NCBI GenBank assembly: GCA_021811435.1
Contig: JAJZOR010000008.1
Location: 1 to 48,251, forward strand
Direction of reading: 5' to 3'
DNA: 48,251 nucleotides
Source: Microcaldota archaeon
Lineage (GTDB): Archaea > Micrarchaeota > Micrarchaeia > Micrarchaeales > Micrarchaeaceae
The notes beneath the pieces were generated by a model. The model had not been told where the DNA came from and ran no database searches. It saw only the letters and a program-made list of their open reading frames with translations. Both the position numbers and the translations under genes were made by a program. Below are positions 39,886-47,327 of the stretch, in pieces. Position 1 is the first letter of the stretch. Every line of letters starts with the position of its first letter.

Positions 39886-40074
39886 TTACTGTGATATATT
39901 GGATTCCGAATGTCTATAAACCTGTCTGCTGCTTAATTCCTTTCCTTTTGCTATGGAACTGAACCCGAGTTTGTCGTCGAAAATCTGATTTGCTCCCATC
40001 GGGATTTGAACCCGAGTTGCAGGGTTGAAAGCCCCGCGTCCTTGGCCGAGTTTGTCATCTTTTTCTAGCTTCAT
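39886..40074 (-). pseudogene. int: int(N): N-terminal part of the partitioned SSV-type integrase
   Basis: A 62-codon frame starting ATG 40074 after GGTG at a good distance. It reads MKLEKDDKLG, then codons derived from the tRNA 3' part (GRGAFNPATRVQIP), then FDDKLGFSS. The same tRNA-derived frame is open at the other border and runs into the rest of the integrase. This is what an SSV-type integrase looks like after integration: attP lies inside int, so the gene is cut into int(N) and int(C). The frame ends at a stop in chromosomal DNA. Confidence 0.8.
39921..40048. repeat. Attachment-site repeat (att), distal copy with partial tRNA-Glu
   Basis: Matches 47101-47228 over about 128 bases. It contains the 3' 58 bases of tRNA-Glu (39991-40048, one mismatch in the acceptor stem, A for T-side base) plus about 70 bases of flanking sequence at lower identity. 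Similarity stops sharply at 40048 in the D-loop part of the tRNA. This is the att copy made when an element integrated into tRNA-Glu. Confidence 0.88.
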
Positions 40075-40220
40075 CCTAGCACCTTCAAAACACCAAAACA
40101 AACATAAACAATTCCAGCTTTCTGAACAGTAGCTTTTCCCAAGCAAGCTATATAAGCAGGCACGGTTCAGTTTTCCCAGAAATCCGAACCCTACTAAAGA
40201 TTAGATAATGCTTATACTTA

Positions 40221-41147
40221 TCATGAAAGAAATTTATCGCCGTTGAAATGCACCATGTGATTTGGCTTATCTGCAAGCCAAATCTCGGTTTCCCACGCTA
40301 TGTTGTCTATGTGCTTCTTAAATTCATGAAAGCTAGGGAATGCAGTTACATATATTCGCTTTGCCTTAGTTACTTTCAGAGCTTCCTCAAGTTCTAGCTT
40401 TCGCTTAGGTGATACTGGCCCATGAGAAGTAACCACTTCAATAAGAAAAAGAAAATTACGCTGTTTTTCGTACAATACTATGTCAGGTAGCTTATTATGG
40501 ACATTAAAAGGTATACCCAATCTGTCAAGTTGATTTCTATTCACATCAAGTGCCTTCTTTGCAGTATCTCCGATGTACAATAGTTCTGAATTAGGACAGA
40601 AGTTTGGTCTGAAATGCTTAATCACCTGTACCTGTAATTCGTTGTGTTTTCCTGGAGACAGCTTTATAGTAGGCATATTCGGTAATTTGATTGGAATCTT
40701 ATTTGATTCGCTCCGCCTATCATATTCGTCCGTAAGTCTACCGACGTTCTTTATGAACAAGCCAAGGTTTTTATTCCAGTTTCCAGTCCCATAACTTCTA
40801 ATCGTTTTTAGAGCGATAGGTGATATTATATATACTGTATTTGGGCTATTTGTTGGTCTCGATGGAACGTCAGTATTTCTAAACACAAGTCCCGCTTGCT
40901 CAAATTGATGTAATGTTTGCCTCCTTATCGTTTCTCTTGTGTTCTCCGCATAGGTTTTTCCATAGTCCATCTTTATGAAAGTTAATATATCGTGAATCCC
41001 GATAGATTTTTCTTCGGCATTAGTCCAACTTCCATTCTTCTTTAAGTTTATCAATGCCAAAAGAGTTAACGCAGAGCGTTCATTCTGCTGCGCCCTTGGC
41101 ATGCCAACCGCTTTCAATATCTCTACTGCTTCGCTAATTTTGCTCAT
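40221..41147 (-). CDS. BsuBI/PstI-family type II restriction endonuclease
   Basis: A 308-residue protein of the BsuBI/PstI restriction enzyme type, expected to cut CTGCAG-like sites. An N-terminal helical domain (about 1-130) precedes the catalytic region PDIVLYEKQRNFLFLIEVV followed by TSHGPVSPKRKLEL (about 225-260), which carries the family Asp, Glu and Lys residues. The start overlaps the methyltransferase stop by 4 bases, so the pair is made together. Whether the enzyme still cuts, and its exact site, cannot be told here. Confidence 0.85.
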   Translation of the reverse strand: MSKISEAVEILKAVGMPRAQQNERSALTLLALINLKKNGSWTNAEEKSIGIHDILTFIKMDYGKTYAENTRETIRRQTLHQFEQAGLVFRNTDVPSRPTNSPNTVYIISPIALKTIRSYGTGNWNKNLGLFIKNVGRLTDEYDRRSESNKIPIKLPNMPTIKLSPGKHNELQVQVIKHFRPNFCPNSELLYIGDTAKKALDVNRNQLDRLGIPFNVHNKLPDIVLYEKQRNFLFLIEVVTSHGPVSPKRKLELEEALKVTKAKRIYVTAFPSFHEFKKHIDNIAWETEIWLADKPNHMVHFNGDKFLS

Positions 41148-42739
41148 GCCAACTCCTTGCCAACGGTTAGTATCCTTTCATTGATGTTCAATTCAGCTAG
41201 AACTATTTCATCAAATTGTGCTTCTGTAAGTTTGCCTTTATGATCTAAAACAATTTTTCCTATTTGGCATATTTTTTCCAGTGATGGTAATGGCATATTC
41301 CTCATATCTGTTGCATTTACTTGCGTGTTCCCATTCAATGCCCTGAAATACCTATCTATTAAGGTTGTATTGAGTATTGCTGCCAAACCCATTGTTTCAT
41401 CTACTGACATAGCTCCGTTTATTTTGTGTATGTAATTAACATGATTCTCTATGCCCAAACTTTGTGCGTCTAGGTCTGATTTTAGAAATGGGACTGCATA
41501 TAACCTCCGTGCTTGTTCTTTTGAGCTGAAGCGTTTAACAAGCACGTAGTTTTTCATAGGTACTATAAGCGGAGCACTTTTACTCGAAACTAAGATTGCA
41601 GGAGCCTTACCATTCTTATAGACCGGCCACTCTACCTTGAAGTCCTTCATGTTGTGCATCCATAATAGCGGAGCATAAGCTTTGCCGTTAGGTTTATCAA
41701 TCAGGTACTCCTTTGATCTGAAATCAATTATGGGCCCTGTAGAAATTTCCAGCCCTAAATCTGTTATGAAATTAGGCCATTTGTCTATAGTATGTAAAAT
41801 CTTCACATCCTCTCTAGAGTCTGGTATCCTTATGAAAATCTGGTGCCCTTTCTTGTAAACAATATCTCTGTATTCAACATTCATTTCCCTTACTTCGTCT
41901 AGTTTACCAGTCTTGCTTATGCTGATTAGAACTTGCATGTTTTTAGTTTGATTTCCCTTTTTGAGTTTCATTATTACGCTTTCCTGTAATACATCATCGT
42001 TATGGAAAACCTTCTTTCTTGACTCAAATAGGTGTATGTCCGTTATAGTTGCGGAACTCAGTAGATGCCATCTGAAGTTGTTGTAGTATGTGCCGGAGCA
42101 AAAACTGCGTGGCGTTATGAAAACAGCTTCGCCATTCGGCTTTAGCTTGCTCATAGCCACAGTAATGAAAAGGGCGTAGATATTAGGATGCAAGGCGGCT
42201 AGCATGCGCATAGATTTTGACATTTGGTCTTTTCCAAGCTTATAGTATGGCGGATTGGATATTACAAAATCGTATAGCTCGGCCTCCGAGCCTTTGGCTG
42301 AATCTAGCTTGTTGCTTATTCCGGCGTTCATGTTGGCCTTTATGAAGTCCTCATTGTGTATTGTGTAGTCTAGCTCCTTGCCGTGCTTTTTAAGTTCTTT
42401 TTTGCATGTAGAAAGCGTTTTATTCAAGAACGGTAGAATCCCCTCATCGTTCTCATAAACATCTGCGGTTATCTTAAGCTTGCCTTCGACTGCTGCTAGC
42501 CTCTCGCACACGGCGGCGGTTAGCGTGCCTGTTCCAGTCCCCGGGTCTAGTATGCGCAGCTCGTTTTGGTATATGCTAAACTTGCCAGCCATAAACGAGC
42601 TTATCTCCTTTGGCGTAAAGAATTGGCCTATGTTCTTCCTAACTGATATTTTGCAGCTTTCGGAGTATAAAATAGACAGGCGTTCAGCGTAAGCCGTAAG
42701 GTTTTCATCCTGCATTTTCTCAGGCAATTCCGCTATCAA
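41144..42739 (-). CDS. N6-adenine DNA methyltransferase of the BsuBI/PstI-like system
   Basis: A 531-residue gamma-type methyltransferase. AdoMet-binding motif I is LDPGTGTGTLTAAVCERL (about residues 44-61) and catalytic motif IV is NPPY in FVISNPPYYKLGKDQ (about 146). The C-terminal 230 residues form the target-recognition domain. It protects host DNA from the partner endonuclease. The start is TTG 42739 with GGTG upstream; no ATG fits. First of the two RM genes. Confidence 0.92.
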   Translation of the reverse strand: MIAELPEKMQDENLTAYAERLSILYSESCKISVRKNIGQFFTPKEISSFMAGKFSIYQNELRILDPGTGTGTLTAAVCERLAAVEGKLKITADVYENDEGILPFLNKTLSTCKKELKKHGKELDYTIHNEDFIKANMNAGISNKLDSAKGSEAELYDFVISNPPYYKLGKDQMSKSMRMLAALHPNIYALFITVAMSKLKPNGEAVFITPRSFCSGTYYNNFRWHLLSSATITDIHLFESRKKVFHNDDVLQESVIMKLKKGNQTKNMQVLISISKTGKLDEVREMNVEYRDIVYKKGHQIFIRIPDSREDVKILHTIDKWPNFITDLGLEISTGPIIDFRSKEYLIDKPNGKAYAPLLWMHNMKDFKVEWPVYKNGKAPAILVSSKSAPLIVPMKNYVLVKRFSSKEQARRLYAVPFLKSDLDAQSLGIENHVNYIHKINGAMSVDETMGLAAILNTTLIDRYFRALNGNTQVNATDMRNMPLPSLEKICQIGKIVLDHKGKLTEAQFDEIVLAELNINERILTVGKELA

Positions 42740-42851
42740 GTCCTACACCAGTTCTTATTTTGTATTAAACTAATTTATACTTTCACTGTTCAATCAACTA
42801 ATATATAGCTTGGGGTGGTCAAGTTCCCAAGTATGATCCCAAAAAGTCCAA

Positions 42852-43571
42852 TTAACCTATTTTAAAGTAATTACTCAGAATTTTTACAATTCCAGCTTTT
42901 GTAGCCAAAATCGCTTGCTCTGCTTCTTTTTCAGACACCATATAGTAGGCCCCGAGAATCTTCTTTGCTGTCTCCAAATCTACCTTTACCGGCCCGCTAA
43001 TCTCTCCTTCTTTTAGGTCGCCGAATCCGCTTTCCTTTGCTATCTTATCTAAACTATCACTAATTTCTTTAGCCTCTCTTTCATCAATATGCGCTACTCT
43101 ATCTCCAATGTCAATTATTTTATTTCCTAGTTCAGCAGCGGTCTCTTTATCCAAAATCTTAAAGTTGTCTGCCTTATCAACCAAGGTATCCCATCCTACA
43201 AATTTTTGGTCTTCGCCTAATTTACCACTCCATGTTACTTTATTTTTACTGGCAAGTTCTTTCACCACATCTGGGCCTTCAATATTCCGCATCTCAATTT
43301 TATTAATAGCTGTAAACATGAAATATCTGATAGTAGTCCTGCACATCAAAGCAGTAGCAATATAAAATCCAGATTCATAACACTTCGCAGCTTCTATAAA
43401 CAAAAATAGCCCCTGCCTAAATTTATCCTCTTCCGCTATTCTACCAACATTATTCTTGTTGGCCTCCATTTCTATCTCCTTGCGTAGACTTTCATATAAG
43501 CTATAAGCTGTTTTGTTACTATTTATCCCCAAGATGCGTTTAATTTTGCAAGAGAGCTCAAATTTGTCCAT
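42852..43571 (-). CDS. Unknown helical protein of the island (DUF4145/HEPN-like?)
   Basis: A 239-residue soluble, helix-rich protein. Residues about 45-90 (FRQGLFLFIEAAKCYESGFYIATALMCRTTIRYF) resemble the core helices of DUF4145/HEPN-type domains, where a Y/F-rich helix is followed by Arg-containing R-x4-6-H-like segments; a downstream RVAHID (about 175) could supply the His. This is a resemblance, not a firm match. It begins 8 bases after the stop of the preceding unknown gene, so the two form a pair just upstream of the RM operon. Confidence 0.65.
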   Translation of the reverse strand: MDKFELSCKIKRILGINSNKTAYSLYESLRKEIEMEANKNNVGRIAEEDKFRQGLFLFIEAAKCYESGFYIATALMCRTTIRYFMFTAINKIEMRNIEGPDVVKELASKNKVTWSGKLGEDQKFVGWDTLVDKADNFKILDKETAAELGNKIIDIGDRVAHIDEREAKEISDSLDKIAKESGFGDLKEGEISGPVKVDLETAKKILGAYYMVSEKEAEQAILATKAGIVKILSNYFKIG

Positions 43572-43579
43572 GTAATCAC

Positions 43580-44272
43580 TTAGGGATAAGACTTCAACTC
43601 TTCAAAGAAACGTTCCTTTGTAATAACTCCTTCAATTTCTAAGTAAGGTGCTAGAAGGATGAAGGTTTCCTTAGCGAAAGCAAGCATGTCAATATAATTC
43701 CATTTGCCATCTTTTAAGAAAACCGCGCCCCTCACCTTTTCGCCTTCTATAGTCATTCCAGCATTATAGCCGTACTTAGTCAAATCATCCACTCCGTGTA
43801 TATTGCTTATCAGCTCAGCCAAGCCTGTGTCATCAATTACAAGCTCCTTTCCAGAACTTTTCTCTTGCGATGGCTTGATATTGCGTGATAAAGGCACTAA
43901 GGTCTTGCCTTCAAGCATAGTACTGCTTTCTATTGGCACTATCATCTTCTTTAGCAAGGTCAAAAAAGAGGTGTTTATGCTCTCCGCTTCCTTTTCGATA
44001 GCTTTCAAGTCGAATGTAACCTTCATAAGAGAGGTGTATGCTTCCTTCTTGTTAGCTATCTTGTCCTTGGTCTCATCAGTGGTGTGCATGTCTAGAGTAA
44101 ATTTGCGCCCTTCTTTATCCGTTATGAACCTAATTGTGAAATGTTTCTTTAGCTCCTTTTCTATAAACATGAGCTTCATGTCCTTACTTGCTTCCTTACC
44201 TCCGATGCCAACGATAACTGGAAGCTTGCCAAATTTTATGCACTTAGGCAGTTTAGGCTTATTTTCGACCAT
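43580..44272 (-). CDS. Unknown protein of the island, paired with 42852
   Basis: A 230-residue protein with Lys/Glu-rich alternating strands and helices (FGKLPVIVGIGGKEASKDMKL near the start, LKDGKWNYIDMLAFAKETFILLAP near the end). No known motif is seen. ATG 44272 is chosen (MVENKPK); an ATG 10 codons upstream is weaker. It is followed after 8 bases by the HEPN-like gene. Its location in an island beside restriction-modification suggests a defence or counter-defence role, but this is only position. Confidence 0.65.
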   Translation of the reverse strand: MVENKPKLPKCIKFGKLPVIVGIGGKEASKDMKLMFIEKELKKHFTIRFITDKEGRKFTLDMHTTDETKDKIANKKEAYTSLMKVTFDLKAIEKEAESINTSFLTLLKKMIVPIESSTMLEGKTLVPLSRNIKPSQEKSSGKELVIDDTGLAELISNIHGVDDLTKYGYNAGMTIEGEKVRGAVFLKDGKWNYIDMLAFAKETFILLAPYLEIEGVITKERFFEELKSYP

Positions 44273-44360
44273 AGTATCACTTAGTATTAACTTTATACGC
44301 ACCTTTTACAACAAAATAAGTTAATGTAAATATATACGTTTTCTGTCTAATTTTATAATA

Positions 44361-44605
44361 GGTAACCCTAGCCCTTTAAACTACACCGGCACGTTCGGAG
44401 CAAACTCCTCACGTGGGCTAGCGTGCCAACGCACTGTAAGTTGGCAACCCAGCAAGCGGCTTGTTTTGAGTGGGGGCAAAACAAGCCTAGGGCGTCCATG
44501 TGATGTAAGGTAGCCGTAGCCCGCTGAGCGACACCGAAGGTGTCTTTGGGGCGGGCGGAGGCTGCAAGGCGGGATAGTCTCTACACGACTCTCTACATGG
44601 ACGGC
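44361..44605 (+). ncRNA. Candidate large structured RNA in the island
   Basis: About 245 GC-rich bases inside AT-rich DNA, with consecutive perfect helices: CTAGCCC 44368-44374/44415-44421; TGCCAAC 44424-44430/44440-44446; GGCTTGTTTT 44458-44467/44478-44487; CGTCCATGT 44493-44501/44595-44603. Nested in the last are GTAGCC 44510-44515/44560-44565 (one wobble), GCCCGC 44519-44524/44551-44556 and GACACC 44530-44535/44539-44544. TATA-like AAATATATAC at 44329-44338 would start a plus-strand transcript near 44361, just before the first helix. A frame open on the other strand reads through the helices and is not credible as a gene. RNA family not recognised. Confidence 0.65.
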
Positions 44606-44724
44606 TATAATATTGATGTGCAGTAGTTCCTCATAAAAAAAGCCCTGTTTTGAAAGATTCCCTCGATACTCTTCTCTACATGGATTGCCTAAGTCATGTA
44701 GAGAACTTTGCGGCATGTAGAGAA
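44590..44724. repeat. TCTCTACATG repeats with a perfect 11-bp inverted pair
   Basis: The motif occurs at 44590-44599, 44672-44682 (TTCTCTACATG), inverted at 44695-44705 and again inverted at 44714-44724 (CATGTAGAGAA). The middle two form a perfect 11-bp inverted repeat with a 12-base spacer; a variant TCTCTACACG is near 44578. The group lies between the structured RNA and the small gene at 44756. It may be an operator, an iteron-type site or RNA hairpins. Confidence 0.6.
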
Positions 44725-44755
44725 ATCGCTTAAACTGCTTGGAAAGCCGTCATAG

Positions 44756-44947
44756 TCAGTCCCAAACGTCGCTTACGAGTGCCTTTACGGACTTGTACTT
44801 GTGCACCTTTCCAGTCCTAAGCTCCTCAAGCCCTATATCCAAGCCAGTAACCTTCTTTTTCTTCATGGCATTGGCTATTAGAGTGATTTGAACTTCAAGA
44901 TTGACGAGCCTCCTTTCGATCTGACTCACCGACTTTGTATTCGCCAT
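44756..44947 (-). CDS. Small protein, possibly antitoxin-like
   Basis: A 63-residue protein from ATG 44947 (MANTKSVSQIERR). The N-terminal half is a charged helix; the C-terminal part (GLEELRTGKVHKYKSVKALVSDVWD) resembles the tail of RelB/VapB-type antitoxins but no toxin gene is adjacent. The gene sits 21 bases after int(C) on the same strand and next to the TCTCTACATG repeats, which could be its operator. Assignment is tentative. Confidence 0.5.
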   Translation of the reverse strand: MANTKSVSQIERRLVNLEVQITLIANAMKKKKVTGLDIGLEELRTGKVHKYKSVKALVSDVWD

Positions 44948-44968
44948 AATAATATTGTACCGATGCAA

Positions 44969-45539
44969 TTATTTAGGGTTTGTTATCAAATTTTTGAGCC
45001 TTTCGGCTTTCTCTACCGAAAACGCCTCATCCACCGCTTTGTAAAGCTCGTCTTTTCTAGTGTTTATGTAGGTCATGGTGGTGCTTGGGTCGCTATGCCG
45101 CGCGAACCTGCTTGAAAGCACCACATTCCCATTGCTTTGGCGTGCGAAGCTGGTTATCGCGTAGTGCCTCAGGCTGTGAGTGGTAAGCCTATGCAGCCGC
45201 CTTGGTGTCCTTCTGTATGACTCCTCGCTCTGGTCGTACACTTCGTCCAGCTTTGCCGCTCGGACATACTCCCTGAACACCTTCCGCACGTAGTTCTTCT
45301 CTAGGAACGGCTCGCCCCTAAGGCTATGCCCAAGCTCCGCGAAGAACACGAAACCACCAGCTTGAGTGATCGCCCGCTCATTACGGTTTATGAACTCGAC
45401 AGTTTGCCGAAAAAGTGGCACCGGAATTAGCATTGTATCAATTATGTGAGCCTTTTCCGTTTTCACGATTAGTTCACGTGTCTCGAACTTGATGTCTTTT
45501 ACGTTCACCTTGACAGCTTCGCCTATCCTGAGTCCAAGC
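44969..45539 (-). pseudogene. int: int(C): catalytic part of the tyrosine integrase, cut by IS110
   Basis: About 190 codons. In frame from the insertion point: LGLRIGEAVKVNVKDI with the first catalytic Arg, TTHSLRHYAIT with the His-x-x-Arg pair, then RHSDPSTTMTYIN with the third His and the Tyr nucleophile. The upstream half lies at 46853-47228 on the other side of the IS110-type element. The reading frames of both halves are in register once the 1311-bp element is removed. Confidence 0.88.
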
Positions 45540-45599
45540 TGAATGGTATGAGAACTATTCCTTAATCGGCATCGGTTGATAATGTTAATCGGTGTTTGA

Positions 45600-46616
45600 A
45601 TGGAACAGTACTATATAGGCCTAGATTTAGGCACGAAGTGGACGTACGCCACTATGATAAACGGGGAAAAGAACGTAATCAAGGAAGCAAAACTCCCTTG
45701 TGAGGAAGCAGCAATAGAAAGGTTCCTTGGCGGTATACCAAAGGAATGCCTTAATGTTGTGATGGAGGCCTGCGGCATCTGGCACGGCCTGTACGATTAT
45801 CTTGTGGAAAGATGCAATGTCGTCAAAGTTGCCAATCCCATGCAAACGAAGTTGAATTCATCAGGGAAAAAGACCGACAAATTGGATTCAAAGAGGCTGG
45901 CAGAACTTTTGAAAGCAGGAATGATAAACGAGTCTTATGTACCTCAAAAAGATGCAAGAGATTATAGGAGTAAAATCAGACATAGGCAGTCAATGGTAAG
46001 TATATCGACAGAACTCAAGAACCAGATTCATGCGACACTTAGGGAAGAAAACATAAAGCATCCTAAAGAATTCGAAGACATATTTACGAAGAAAGGCATT
46101 ACATGGTTAAAGCATCTTAGAATCAGTGAAATAGACAATTGTCTTGAATTGATCACCGCTGCAAATGTTCAAATAAAGAATGCAGATCATCTGATTCCAG
46201 ATGATCTTTACAGAAATGAGATAAGATTATTGAAAACAATGCCAGGAGTAGGAGATATAACCGCGCCTGTTATAATGTCGGAAATAGTCGACATAAAAAG
46301 ATTTGAAAATCCAAAGGCGTTATGCAAATATGCAGGTTTGGTGCCGAAAGTCATTCAGTCTGGAGAGTCCGATAGGCGCGGTAGATTGGTCAAACAGAGT
46401 TCCAAAATATTAAGGACCGCATTGATTCAATGTGCACAGGGCGTATTAAAGAAAAAGGACGGTGGCAAATTGAAAATGTTTTTCCTGAAAATGGCAAAGA
46501 AGAAAAAATCGAATACTGCAGTGACAGCACTCGCACACAAGATGCTATATATCATGTGGTTTATGCTCACCAACAATGAAGGATTCCATGACGGTGGAAC
46601 CCAAGTTGGTGAGTAG
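45600..46616 (+). CDS. IS110-family DEDD transposase/recombinase
   Basis: A 338-residue RNA-guided recombinase. The N-terminal RuvC-like DEDD domain is visible: Asp9 in GLDLGTKW, Glu56 in VVMEACGIW, Asp93 and Asp96 in KTDKLDSKRLAELL. The C-terminal Transposase_20 domain follows (TMPGVGDITAPVIMSEI, then KALCKYAGLVPKVIQSGES and SSKILRTALIQCA) and should carry the Ser nucleophile. Start ATG 45600 is about 60 bases from the left core; the stop is followed directly by the guide RNA region. Full length and uninterrupted. Confidence 0.93.
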   Translation: MEQYYIGLDLGTKWTYATMINGEKNVIKEAKLPCEEAAIERFLGGIPKECLNVVMEACGIWHGLYDYLVERCNVVKVANPMQTKLNSSGKKTDKLDSKRLAELLKAGMINESYVPQKDARDYRSKIRHRQSMVSISTELKNQIHATLREENIKHPKEFEDIFTKKGITWLKHLRISEIDNCLELITAANVQIKNADHLIPDDLYRNEIRLLKTMPGVGDITAPVIMSEIVDIKRFENPKALCKYAGLVPKVIQSGESDRRGRLVKQSSKILRTALIQCAQGVLKKKDGGKLKMFFLKMAKKKKSNTAVTALAHKMLYIMWFMLTNNEGFHDGGTQVGE

Positions 46617-46725
46617 TGGCAGCGGCACCCCGATCAAGCGCATGGGTCTCGAACCCGACAAGCTGAATGGGGGCCTAAACGACTACCATATTGTGCTTAG
46701 AGCACGGATAGATGTTTGTCGATAG
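46617..46725 (+). ncRNA. Bridge/seek RNA of the IS110-type element
   Basis: Two stem/internal-loop units in a row. Target loop: outer stem from GGCACCCC (46624-46631) with GGGGGCC (46669-46675), inner hairpin GGGT-CTCGA-ACCC (46644-46656). Guides beside it are ATCAAGCGCA (46633-46642), equal to the complement of the right flank, and CAAGCTG (46659-46665), equal to the left flank at 45535-45541. Donor loop: outer stem CGAC/GTCG (46680-46683, 46718-46721), inner hairpin GTGCT-TAG-AGCAC (46693-46705). Its guides are TACCAT (46684-46689), complementary to the left end, and ATAGATG (46708-46714), equal to the right end plus core. Exact transcript ends are unknown. Confidence 0.82.
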
Positions 46726-46804
46726 CCGCAAACCATACAAAAGATATACGAAGGAAAGTGATATAAAAATAGGTGGTACATATTTAATTATAACCCGATG
46801 GAGG

Positions 46805-46834
46805 AATGCAACTGTGTTTTTCAGTTGCATTTTT
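46805..46834 (+). terminator. Intrinsic-type terminator at the end of the IS110 element
   Basis: AATGCAACTG (46805-46814) pairs perfectly with CAGTTGCATT (46822-46831), 10 bp with a 7-base loop rich in T, followed by TTTTC. It lies just inside the right inverted repeat and would stop the transposase/guide RNA transcript before the integrase DNA. Confidence 0.65.
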
Positions 46835-46852
46835 CTTTAGTTCTCATAGATG

Positions 46853-47228
46853 CGCTTGATACCCAAACAATAGGCGAAACTTGTCGTTCTCTATTACCTT
46901 GAAGAAGGCTTGCACCTCCTGTTCCGTGAAGCCCTTATTCAGGCTTCCGTACTTCGGAGGCGCATTGCCTCTGAAACGTTTCTTCTTGATGCGGTAGATT
47001 ACGGACAAGACGTCCTTGATCTCGTGGAAAGTTAGCTGCGGAAGCACCTCCTGTATGTGCTTCTTGAGTTTTTCGGGTTCGGTCTCCGTGATGGAACCGA
47101 ACCGTTTGCTGCTTAATTTCTTTGCATTGGCTAGAGAACTGAACCCGAGTTTGTCGTCGTAAATTCCATTTGCTCCCTTCGGGATTTGAACCCGAGTTGC
47201 AGGGTTGAAAGCCCCGCGTCCTTGGCCG
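46853..47228 (-). pseudogene. int: Integrase middle part, upstream of the IS110 insertion
   Basis: Open from the tRNA-derived codons (GRGAFNPATRVQIP, inside 47171-47228) through DDKLGFSSLANAKKL, TEPEKLKKHIQEVL, to LLFGYQA where the IS110 element begins. No own start is needed: in the circular element this follows int(N) MKLEKDDKLG. Residues up to FGYQA are the N-terminal DNA-binding portion of the recombinase. Joined with int(N) and int(C), a full integrase of about 330 residues results. Confidence 0.82.
47101..47228. repeat. Attachment-site repeat (att), copy at intact tRNA-Glu
   Basis: Partner of 39921-40048. It consists of the 3' part of tRNA-Glu (47171-47228, nearly identical) and about 70 bases beyond the tRNA end at lower identity that code for integrase residues. 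Here the tRNA remains complete because the incoming att sequence re-creates its 3' part. Confidence 0.86.
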
Positions 47229-47245
47229 GACTAGACGAAGGGAGC
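47171..47245 (-). tRNA. tRNA-Glu (TTC), integration site
   Basis: The complement folds as a cloverleaf: acceptor GCTCCCT/AGGGAGC, D-arm TAGTCCGGCCAAGGA, anticodon stem CGGGG/CCCTG around loop CTTTCAA (anticodon TTC), T-arm with GGTTCAAATCC, discriminator A. No intron, no encoded CCA. Its 3' part is the att site of the island; the gene itself is intact. Confidence 0.93.
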
Positions 47246-47327
47246 ATCCTGCTGCGTCAAAACAGGCGCCCGGAGCAGGACAGTTTTCATATCTAGGCGG
47301 CAAACACTATAAATCTTTCCGGATTTT

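What the first reader, a model, noticed from the sequence alone, without database searches (positions are those of the whole stretch)
46617..46675. Guide RNA of an IS110-type element matches both sides of its own insertion target
The noncoding tail contains ATCAAGCGCA and CAAGCTG as the two arms of an internal loop around a GGGT/ACCC hairpin. The first is the complement of the right flank (46851-46860), the second equals the left flank (45535-45541). One guide reads as one strand of the target and the other as its complement, the geometry of a bridge/seek RNA target loop. Two independent matches of 10 and 7 bases, in the correct arms of one loop, are very unlikely by chance.
Basis: partly seen in the sequence, partly recalled or inferred. 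Interest (0 to 1): 0.95.

Follow-up and report, generated by a model that had tools for sequence, protein, structure and literature searches.

The report
Archaeal RNA-guided IS1111 jumping gene
A small jumping gene in a tiny archaeon (a Micrarchaeote, judging by its relatives) carries an RNA whose two short guides spell out both halves of the DNA site it sits in; this is a clear natural case of the RNA-guided IS1111/IS110 transposons already known from bacteria and archaea, here parked in the integrase gene of a genomic island.

Summary
Confirmed. The 1.3-kb element (45542-46850) is an IS1111-type member of the IS110 family: DEDD transposase, 11-bp subterminal inverted repeats, and a long non-coding region downstream of tnp. 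RNA 46614-46729 has a target loop whose arms match the flanks exactly: 10 nt ATCAAGCGCA = reverse complement of 46851-46860, and 7 nt CAAGCTG = 45535-45541. The arms are in the order published for IS1111 seekRNAs. No other site in the window (0/93,726) and no shuffled NCR (0/200,000) gives both matches. Intact orthologues of the interrupted gene show the empty site CCAAGC[TG]CGCTTGAT, with a shared TG core. The interrupted gene is the integrase of a 7.2-kb tRNA-Glu island, hit at the codons of the GLRIGEA motif. The mechanism (bridge RNA/seekRNA-guided insertion) was established in 2024 for these families, so this is a new member of a known kind. No transcript or activity could be tested.

The parts
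45542..46850 (+). IS1111-type insertion sequence (between the two copies of the TG core)
   Evidence: Junctions set by comparison with intact orthologous target genes L033-L036
45535..45541 (+). left target CAAGCTG, including core TG 45540-45541
   Evidence: Equals guide 46659-46665; empty site
46851..46860 (+). right target TGCGCTTGAT, including core TG 46851-46852
   Evidence: Reverse complement of guide 46633-46642
45547..45557 (+). left subterminal inverted repeat TATGAGAACTA
   Evidence: conserved in L004, L005; L009 has TATGAGAACTG
46838..46848 (+). right subterminal inverted repeat TAGTTCTCATA
45600..46616 (+). tnp, 338-aa DEDD transposase/recombinase (D9, E56, D93, D96; GLVPKVIQSG)
   Evidence: PF01548 + PF02371, NF033542 IS110 RNA-guided transposase 2.9e-68, alignment of 10 relatives
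46614..46729 (+). predicted bridge RNA/seekRNA, two internal loops joined by an outer stem
   Evidence: Fold; covariance model and 12 pairs with two-sided changes against 3.8 in shuffles
46633..46642 (+). right target guide ATCAAGCGCA (5' arm of target loop)
46659..46665 (+). left target guide CAAGCTG (3' arm of target loop)
46644..46656 (+). GGGT/ACCC hairpin inside the target loop
46684..46689 (+). right donor guide TACCAT, complement of left-end ATGGTA 45543-45548
   Evidence: Covaries with the left end in L004, L009 and G122
46708..46714 (+). left donor guide ATAGATG, equals right end plus core 46846-46852
46693..46705 (+). GTGCT/AGCAC hairpin inside the donor loop
46761..46767 (+). TATA-box-like ATATAAA in the right end, similar motif in all seven copies examined
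   Evidence: function inferred only
46800..46836 (+). hairpin next to the right inverted repeat, kept as structure while its sequence changes
44969..45541 (-). C-terminal part of the interrupted tyrosine integrase gene
   Evidence: PF00589; orthologues L033-L036
46851..47169 (-). N-terminal part of the same integrase gene, its frame running on into tRNA-Glu; start codon not fixed

Best explanation
An IS1111-type (IS110-family) insertion sequence. Its DEDD recombinase is predicted to bind an RNA made from the non-coding right end. One RNA loop pairs with the two halves of the target (10 nt with the right top strand, 7 nt with the left bottom strand, both including the TG core); the other pairs with the element's joined ends in the excised circle. 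The recombinase then exchanges strands at the TG core, placing the element in one orientation inside the integrase gene of a tRNA-Glu island, at the codons of the conserved YQAQLGLRIGEA motif. Shown here: anatomy, target and donor matches, empty site, RNA covariation, natural retargeting in relatives. Inferred from the 2024 work on other members: transcription, RNA-protein complex, circle intermediate, strand exchange.
For: Exact 10 + 7 nt matches, 0/93,726 sites and 0/200,000 shuffles. Empty sites in four orthologues. Protein: PF01548/PF02371, NF033542 2.9e-68, PDB hits ISCro4 6e-12 and IS621 1.4e-10, DEDD and G--P----SG invariant in 10 relatives. RNA invariant between window and relatives outside the guides and a few other positions. 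Retargeting: L004 LTG ATTAAATGAA (10 nt) and RTG GATATT (6 nt); L009 LTG TATTTTGTT and RTG AAAGAATAT (9 + 9 nt) match their own, different flanks; own-versus-swapped flanks 208 against a mean of 142 over 14 elements, 154 against 102 over 10 chosen to be less alike, 0/200,000 each. Donor guide covaries with the left end: 6 nt to its own, at most 5 to others'. Same site hit in L005's diverged integrase (flanks about 76-78% DNA identity, IS 91.8%), which suggests separate insertions.
Against: No transcript, circle or transposition was observed. Some relatives match only partly (L026, L019, L018, L030, L031), the L004 right guide matches 6 nt with a one-base offset, and end-only relics L049 and L054 do not match. 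Own flanks also exceeded swapped ones in the reversed-order control (182 against 139), because long single matches raise both scores, so that test alone does not prove the order.
Confidence: 0.95

Rival explanations
1. The guide-like segments are flanking DNA captured or copied into the element (for example by imprecise excision), not functional guides.
For: The left match continues into the element's own end (CAAGCTGAATGG, 12 nt), as a copied junction would.
Against: The two matches are in opposite sense, in two arms of one conserved structure, and the rest of the RNA is nearly invariant. Relatives carry different segments at the same two positions that match their own flanks. The 5-nt extension does not follow the left end in L004 (AATGG against AACGG) or L009.
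Confidence: 0.03
2. The element belongs to the IS110 group proper (IS621-like), with the RNA moved to the other end.
For: Shared DEDD domain; IS621 is among the only two PDB transposases matched.
Against: 11-bp subterminal inverted repeats, short left end, RNA in the right end and top-strand guide 5' of bottom-strand guide are the IS1111 traits (PMC11187229, PMC11208160). Transposase length 338 aa lies in the IS1111 range of 330-350.
Confidence: 0.03
3. The element is a dead remnant whose guides record a past insertion; it no longer moves.
For: Single full copy in the genome; relics of related ends elsewhere in the genome; L005 and L009 copies have disrupted tnp frames.
Against: The window tnp is open over 338 aa with all catalytic residues, and ends and RNA are intact.
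Confidence: 0.25

Closest known systems
IS1111-family insertion sequences with seekRNA (ISEc11, ISPa11, ISKpn4, ISPst6; Siddiquee et al. 2024, PMC11187229)
   Same: DEDD transposase of about 340 aa, subterminal inverted repeats, NCR downstream of tnp, two short target matches with the top-strand match 5', natural retargeting among relatives, insertion without loss of target sequence
   Different: Archaeal (Micrarchaeota) host; highly diverged transposase (at most 34% identity to the best-listed plasmid-borne relatives); different target
IS621 and IS110-group bridge RNA (Durrant et al. 2024, PMC11208160)
   Same: Target loop and donor loop, dinucleotide core covered by both guides, donor guides for the element's own ends, DEDD recombinase
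   Different: RNA in the right end instead of the left, long inverted repeats, arm order reversed relative to the strand of the element
ISEc21 (IS110 family)
   Same: Targets the codons of a catalytic motif in another mobile element's recombinase gene (PMC11187229); here the window element hits an island integrase
   Different: ISEc21 has an upstream NCR and hits a DDE transposase; the window element hits a tyrosine integrase

Membership tests
IS1111 group of the IS110 family | DEDD/RuvC N-terminal domain plus Transposase_20 C-terminal domain | tested here: met
   D9, E56, D93, D96 invariant
IS1111 group of the IS110 family | GL-P----S(t)G motif in the C-terminal domain | tested here: met
   GLVPKVIQSG, residues 246-255
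IS1111 group of the IS110 family | Subterminal inverted repeats of 7-17 bp, usually 11-13 | tested here: met
   11 bp perfect
IS1111 group of the IS110 family | Asymmetric extensions of 7 + 3 or 6 + 3 bp beyond the repeats | tested here: met
   9 bp lie between the repeats in the predicted circle (GA-TG-AATGG), compatible with 6 + 3; the exact cut within the core is not fixed
IS1111 group of the IS110 family | Long NCR downstream of tnp | tested here: met
   46617-46837, 221 bp; left side 42 bp between repeat and tnp
IS1111 group of the IS110 family | Insertion leaves the target intact apart from the element | tested here: met
   Empty site in four orthologues, TG shared
IS1111 group of the IS110 family | Transposase falls in the IS1111 clade of the family tree | not tested
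   No tree with reference IS110/IS1111 sequences was built
seekRNA / bridge RNA system | RNA segments matching both strands of the target, top-strand match 5' (IS1111 order) | tested here: met
seekRNA / bridge RNA system | Donor loop matching the element's ends (bridge RNA) | tested here: met
   TACCAT and ATAGATG; covaries in relatives
seekRNA / bridge RNA system | RNA transcribed and bound by the transposase | not testable with these tools
   No transcript or protein data
seekRNA / bridge RNA system | Circular intermediate, RNA-dependent transposition, reprogramming | not testable with these tools
   Needs an experiment
IS110 group (IS621-like) | RNA in the left end, very short inverted repeats | tested here: not met
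   RNA downstream, 11-bp repeats

The most novel reading that the evidence does not exclude
The guide is aimed at the codons of the most conserved integrase motif (YQAQLGLRIGEA), so one RNA can serve a whole family of tRNA-island integrases; such elements would act as RNA-guided parasites that immobilise islands in Micrarchaeota. In addition, the right-end hairpin with an upstream TATA-like box, present in all seven copies examined, may be a regulatory part of archaeal IS1111 elements that has not been described.
Probability: 0.35. Interest if true: 0.5.

Novelty: new member of a known kind. Interest (0 to 1): 0.4.

Why it matters
It extends a fully legible RNA-guided transposon (all four guides, both ends, core and empty site readable) to a small-genome archaeon, and its relatives show the RNA body kept nearly constant while guides change with the target. 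That makes it a compact natural test set for how these guides are rewritten, and a candidate recombinase from an archaeal lineage for DNA-insertion tools.

Tried and rejected
A scan of viral contigs with the transposase found no relative. Rfam has no family matching the RNA. A first guess of GA as core gave an empty gene 3 bp too long; orthologues corrected it to TG. The empty site of L004 was not found in 58 other genomes of its family. The sigma-70 scan found no promoter, as expected for an archaeon. The first inverted-repeat scan used loci in the wrong orientation and was redone.

Full report
Observation. ATCAAGCGCA (46633-46642) is the reverse complement of the right flank 46851-46860; CAAGCTG (46659-46665) equals the left flank 45535-45541; a GGGT/ACCC hairpin lies between them. 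Treating every window position on both strands as a possible insertion site, none of 93,726 gives 10 and 7 nt or more together; none of 200,000 shuffled NCRs does.

The element. ORF 45600-46616 (338 aa) has the DEDD_Tnp_IS110 and Transposase_20 domains, is named by NCBIfam as an IS110 RNA-guided transposase (2.9e-68), and matches the solved ISCro4 and IS621 transposases. D9, E56, D93, D96 and the G--P----SG motif are invariant in ten aligned Micrarchaeota transposases. Perfect 11-bp subterminal inverted repeats bound it, the left end is short and a 221-bp non-coding region follows tnp: the IS1111 layout (PMC11187229; PMC11208160).

Target. The element interrupts a tyrosine integrase gene on the minus strand. 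Two orthologues carry the exact target uninterrupted (L033, L036), one has a single mismatch (L035) and one three (L034); they read YQAQLGLRIGEA across the site. Comparison shows that TG is shared by both flanks and that nothing of the target was lost; both guides cover TG. L005, 91.8% identical as DNA over the element, sits at the same codons of an integrase whose flanks are only about 76-78% identical, which suggests separate targeting rather than descent.

RNA. Segment 46614-46729 folds into an outer stem with a target arm and a donor arm. Between the window, L005 and L004 it is almost invariant except at the two target guides, one donor-guide base and two positions near the 3' end. A covariance model finds further copies in other Micrarchaeota and a relic in the same genome. 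Over the aligned matches 12 of 25 pairs have two-sided changes against 3.8 in shuffles, and slid structures fail; the alignment was fitted to the model and includes weak matches, so this leans in favour.

Donor loop. TACCAT (46684-46689) is the complement of the left end and ATAGATG (46708-46714) equals the right end plus TG. The right donor guide changes with the left end: TACCAT/ATGGTA in the window, TACCGT in L004, ACCAAC in L009, TACCAG in G122 (guide and end there lie on different contigs); each matches its own end at 6 nt and others' at 5 or fewer.

Retargeting. L004 lies between genes with guides matching its own flanks (10 and 6 nt). L009/L008 lie in sequence that recurs in other genomes of the family and have 9 + 9 nt to their flanks; the empty sites are present in other genomes. 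Over 14 elements own flanks score 208 against 142 for swapped flanks, and over ten less similar ones 154 against 102; neither was reached in 200,000 permutations. The top-strand guide lies 5' of the bottom-strand guide, the order reported for IS1111. Exceptions: partial matches in several distant elements, and none in the end-only relics L049 and L054.

Novelty. The 2024 papers established guided insertion for this family, note its abundance in bacteria and archaea and saw natural retargeting. A search of the held papers for Micrarchaeota with IS110 and insertion sequence returned none, but absence from that library proves little. I file it as a new member of a known kind.

Not shown. Transcription, RNA binding, circle formation and activity are inferred from those papers. 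The host is called a Micrarchaeote because the two nearest named relatives are Micrarchaeota MAGs, one of them held again as a genome of the window's own genus (G239).

Noticed in passing
39924-47228: A 7.2-kb island bounded by 125-nt direct repeats (90% alike) that include the 3' part of tRNA-Glu (47170-47246); it carries a BsuBI/PstI-type restriction endonuclease (40221-41147) and an N6-adenine methylase (41144-42739), and the integrase interrupted by the element.
   Followed up: partly
G000, loci L066-L073: The 1.1-Mb genome encodes eight related tyrosine integrases (seven others at 55-64% identity to the window copy), several next to tRNA genes (Leu, Ala, Ala, Pro, Glu); the closest genomes have five to nine matches.
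   Followed up: partly
L068, L071: Two other integrases of the same genome carry the target with one mismatch, which would be a G-U pair with the guide, but are not occupied.
   Followed up: partly
46800-46836 and L004, L005, L009, L049, L050, L054: A hairpin next to the right inverted repeat is kept in all seven copies although its sequence differs; z-scores -2.8 to -5.6. Function unknown, perhaps transcript end or insulation.
   Followed up: partly
46761-46767: TATA-like ATATAAA about 70 bp before the right repeat, with a similar motif in all seven copies; in the circle it would point towards tnp.
   Followed up: no
L002 (G000:C3:3766-3807) and L054 (G000:C17:141896-142000): Relics in the same genome: a lone left end and a right end with RNA but without tnp.
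   Followed up: partly
45535-45546 and 46659-46670: The left target guide match continues 5 nt into the element's own left end (CAAGCTGAATGG); not kept in L004 or L009.
   Followed up: partly
44969-47226 minus strand: The integrase reading frame runs through the 3' half of tRNA-Glu, so the attachment site appears to overlap the start of the gene.
   Followed up: no
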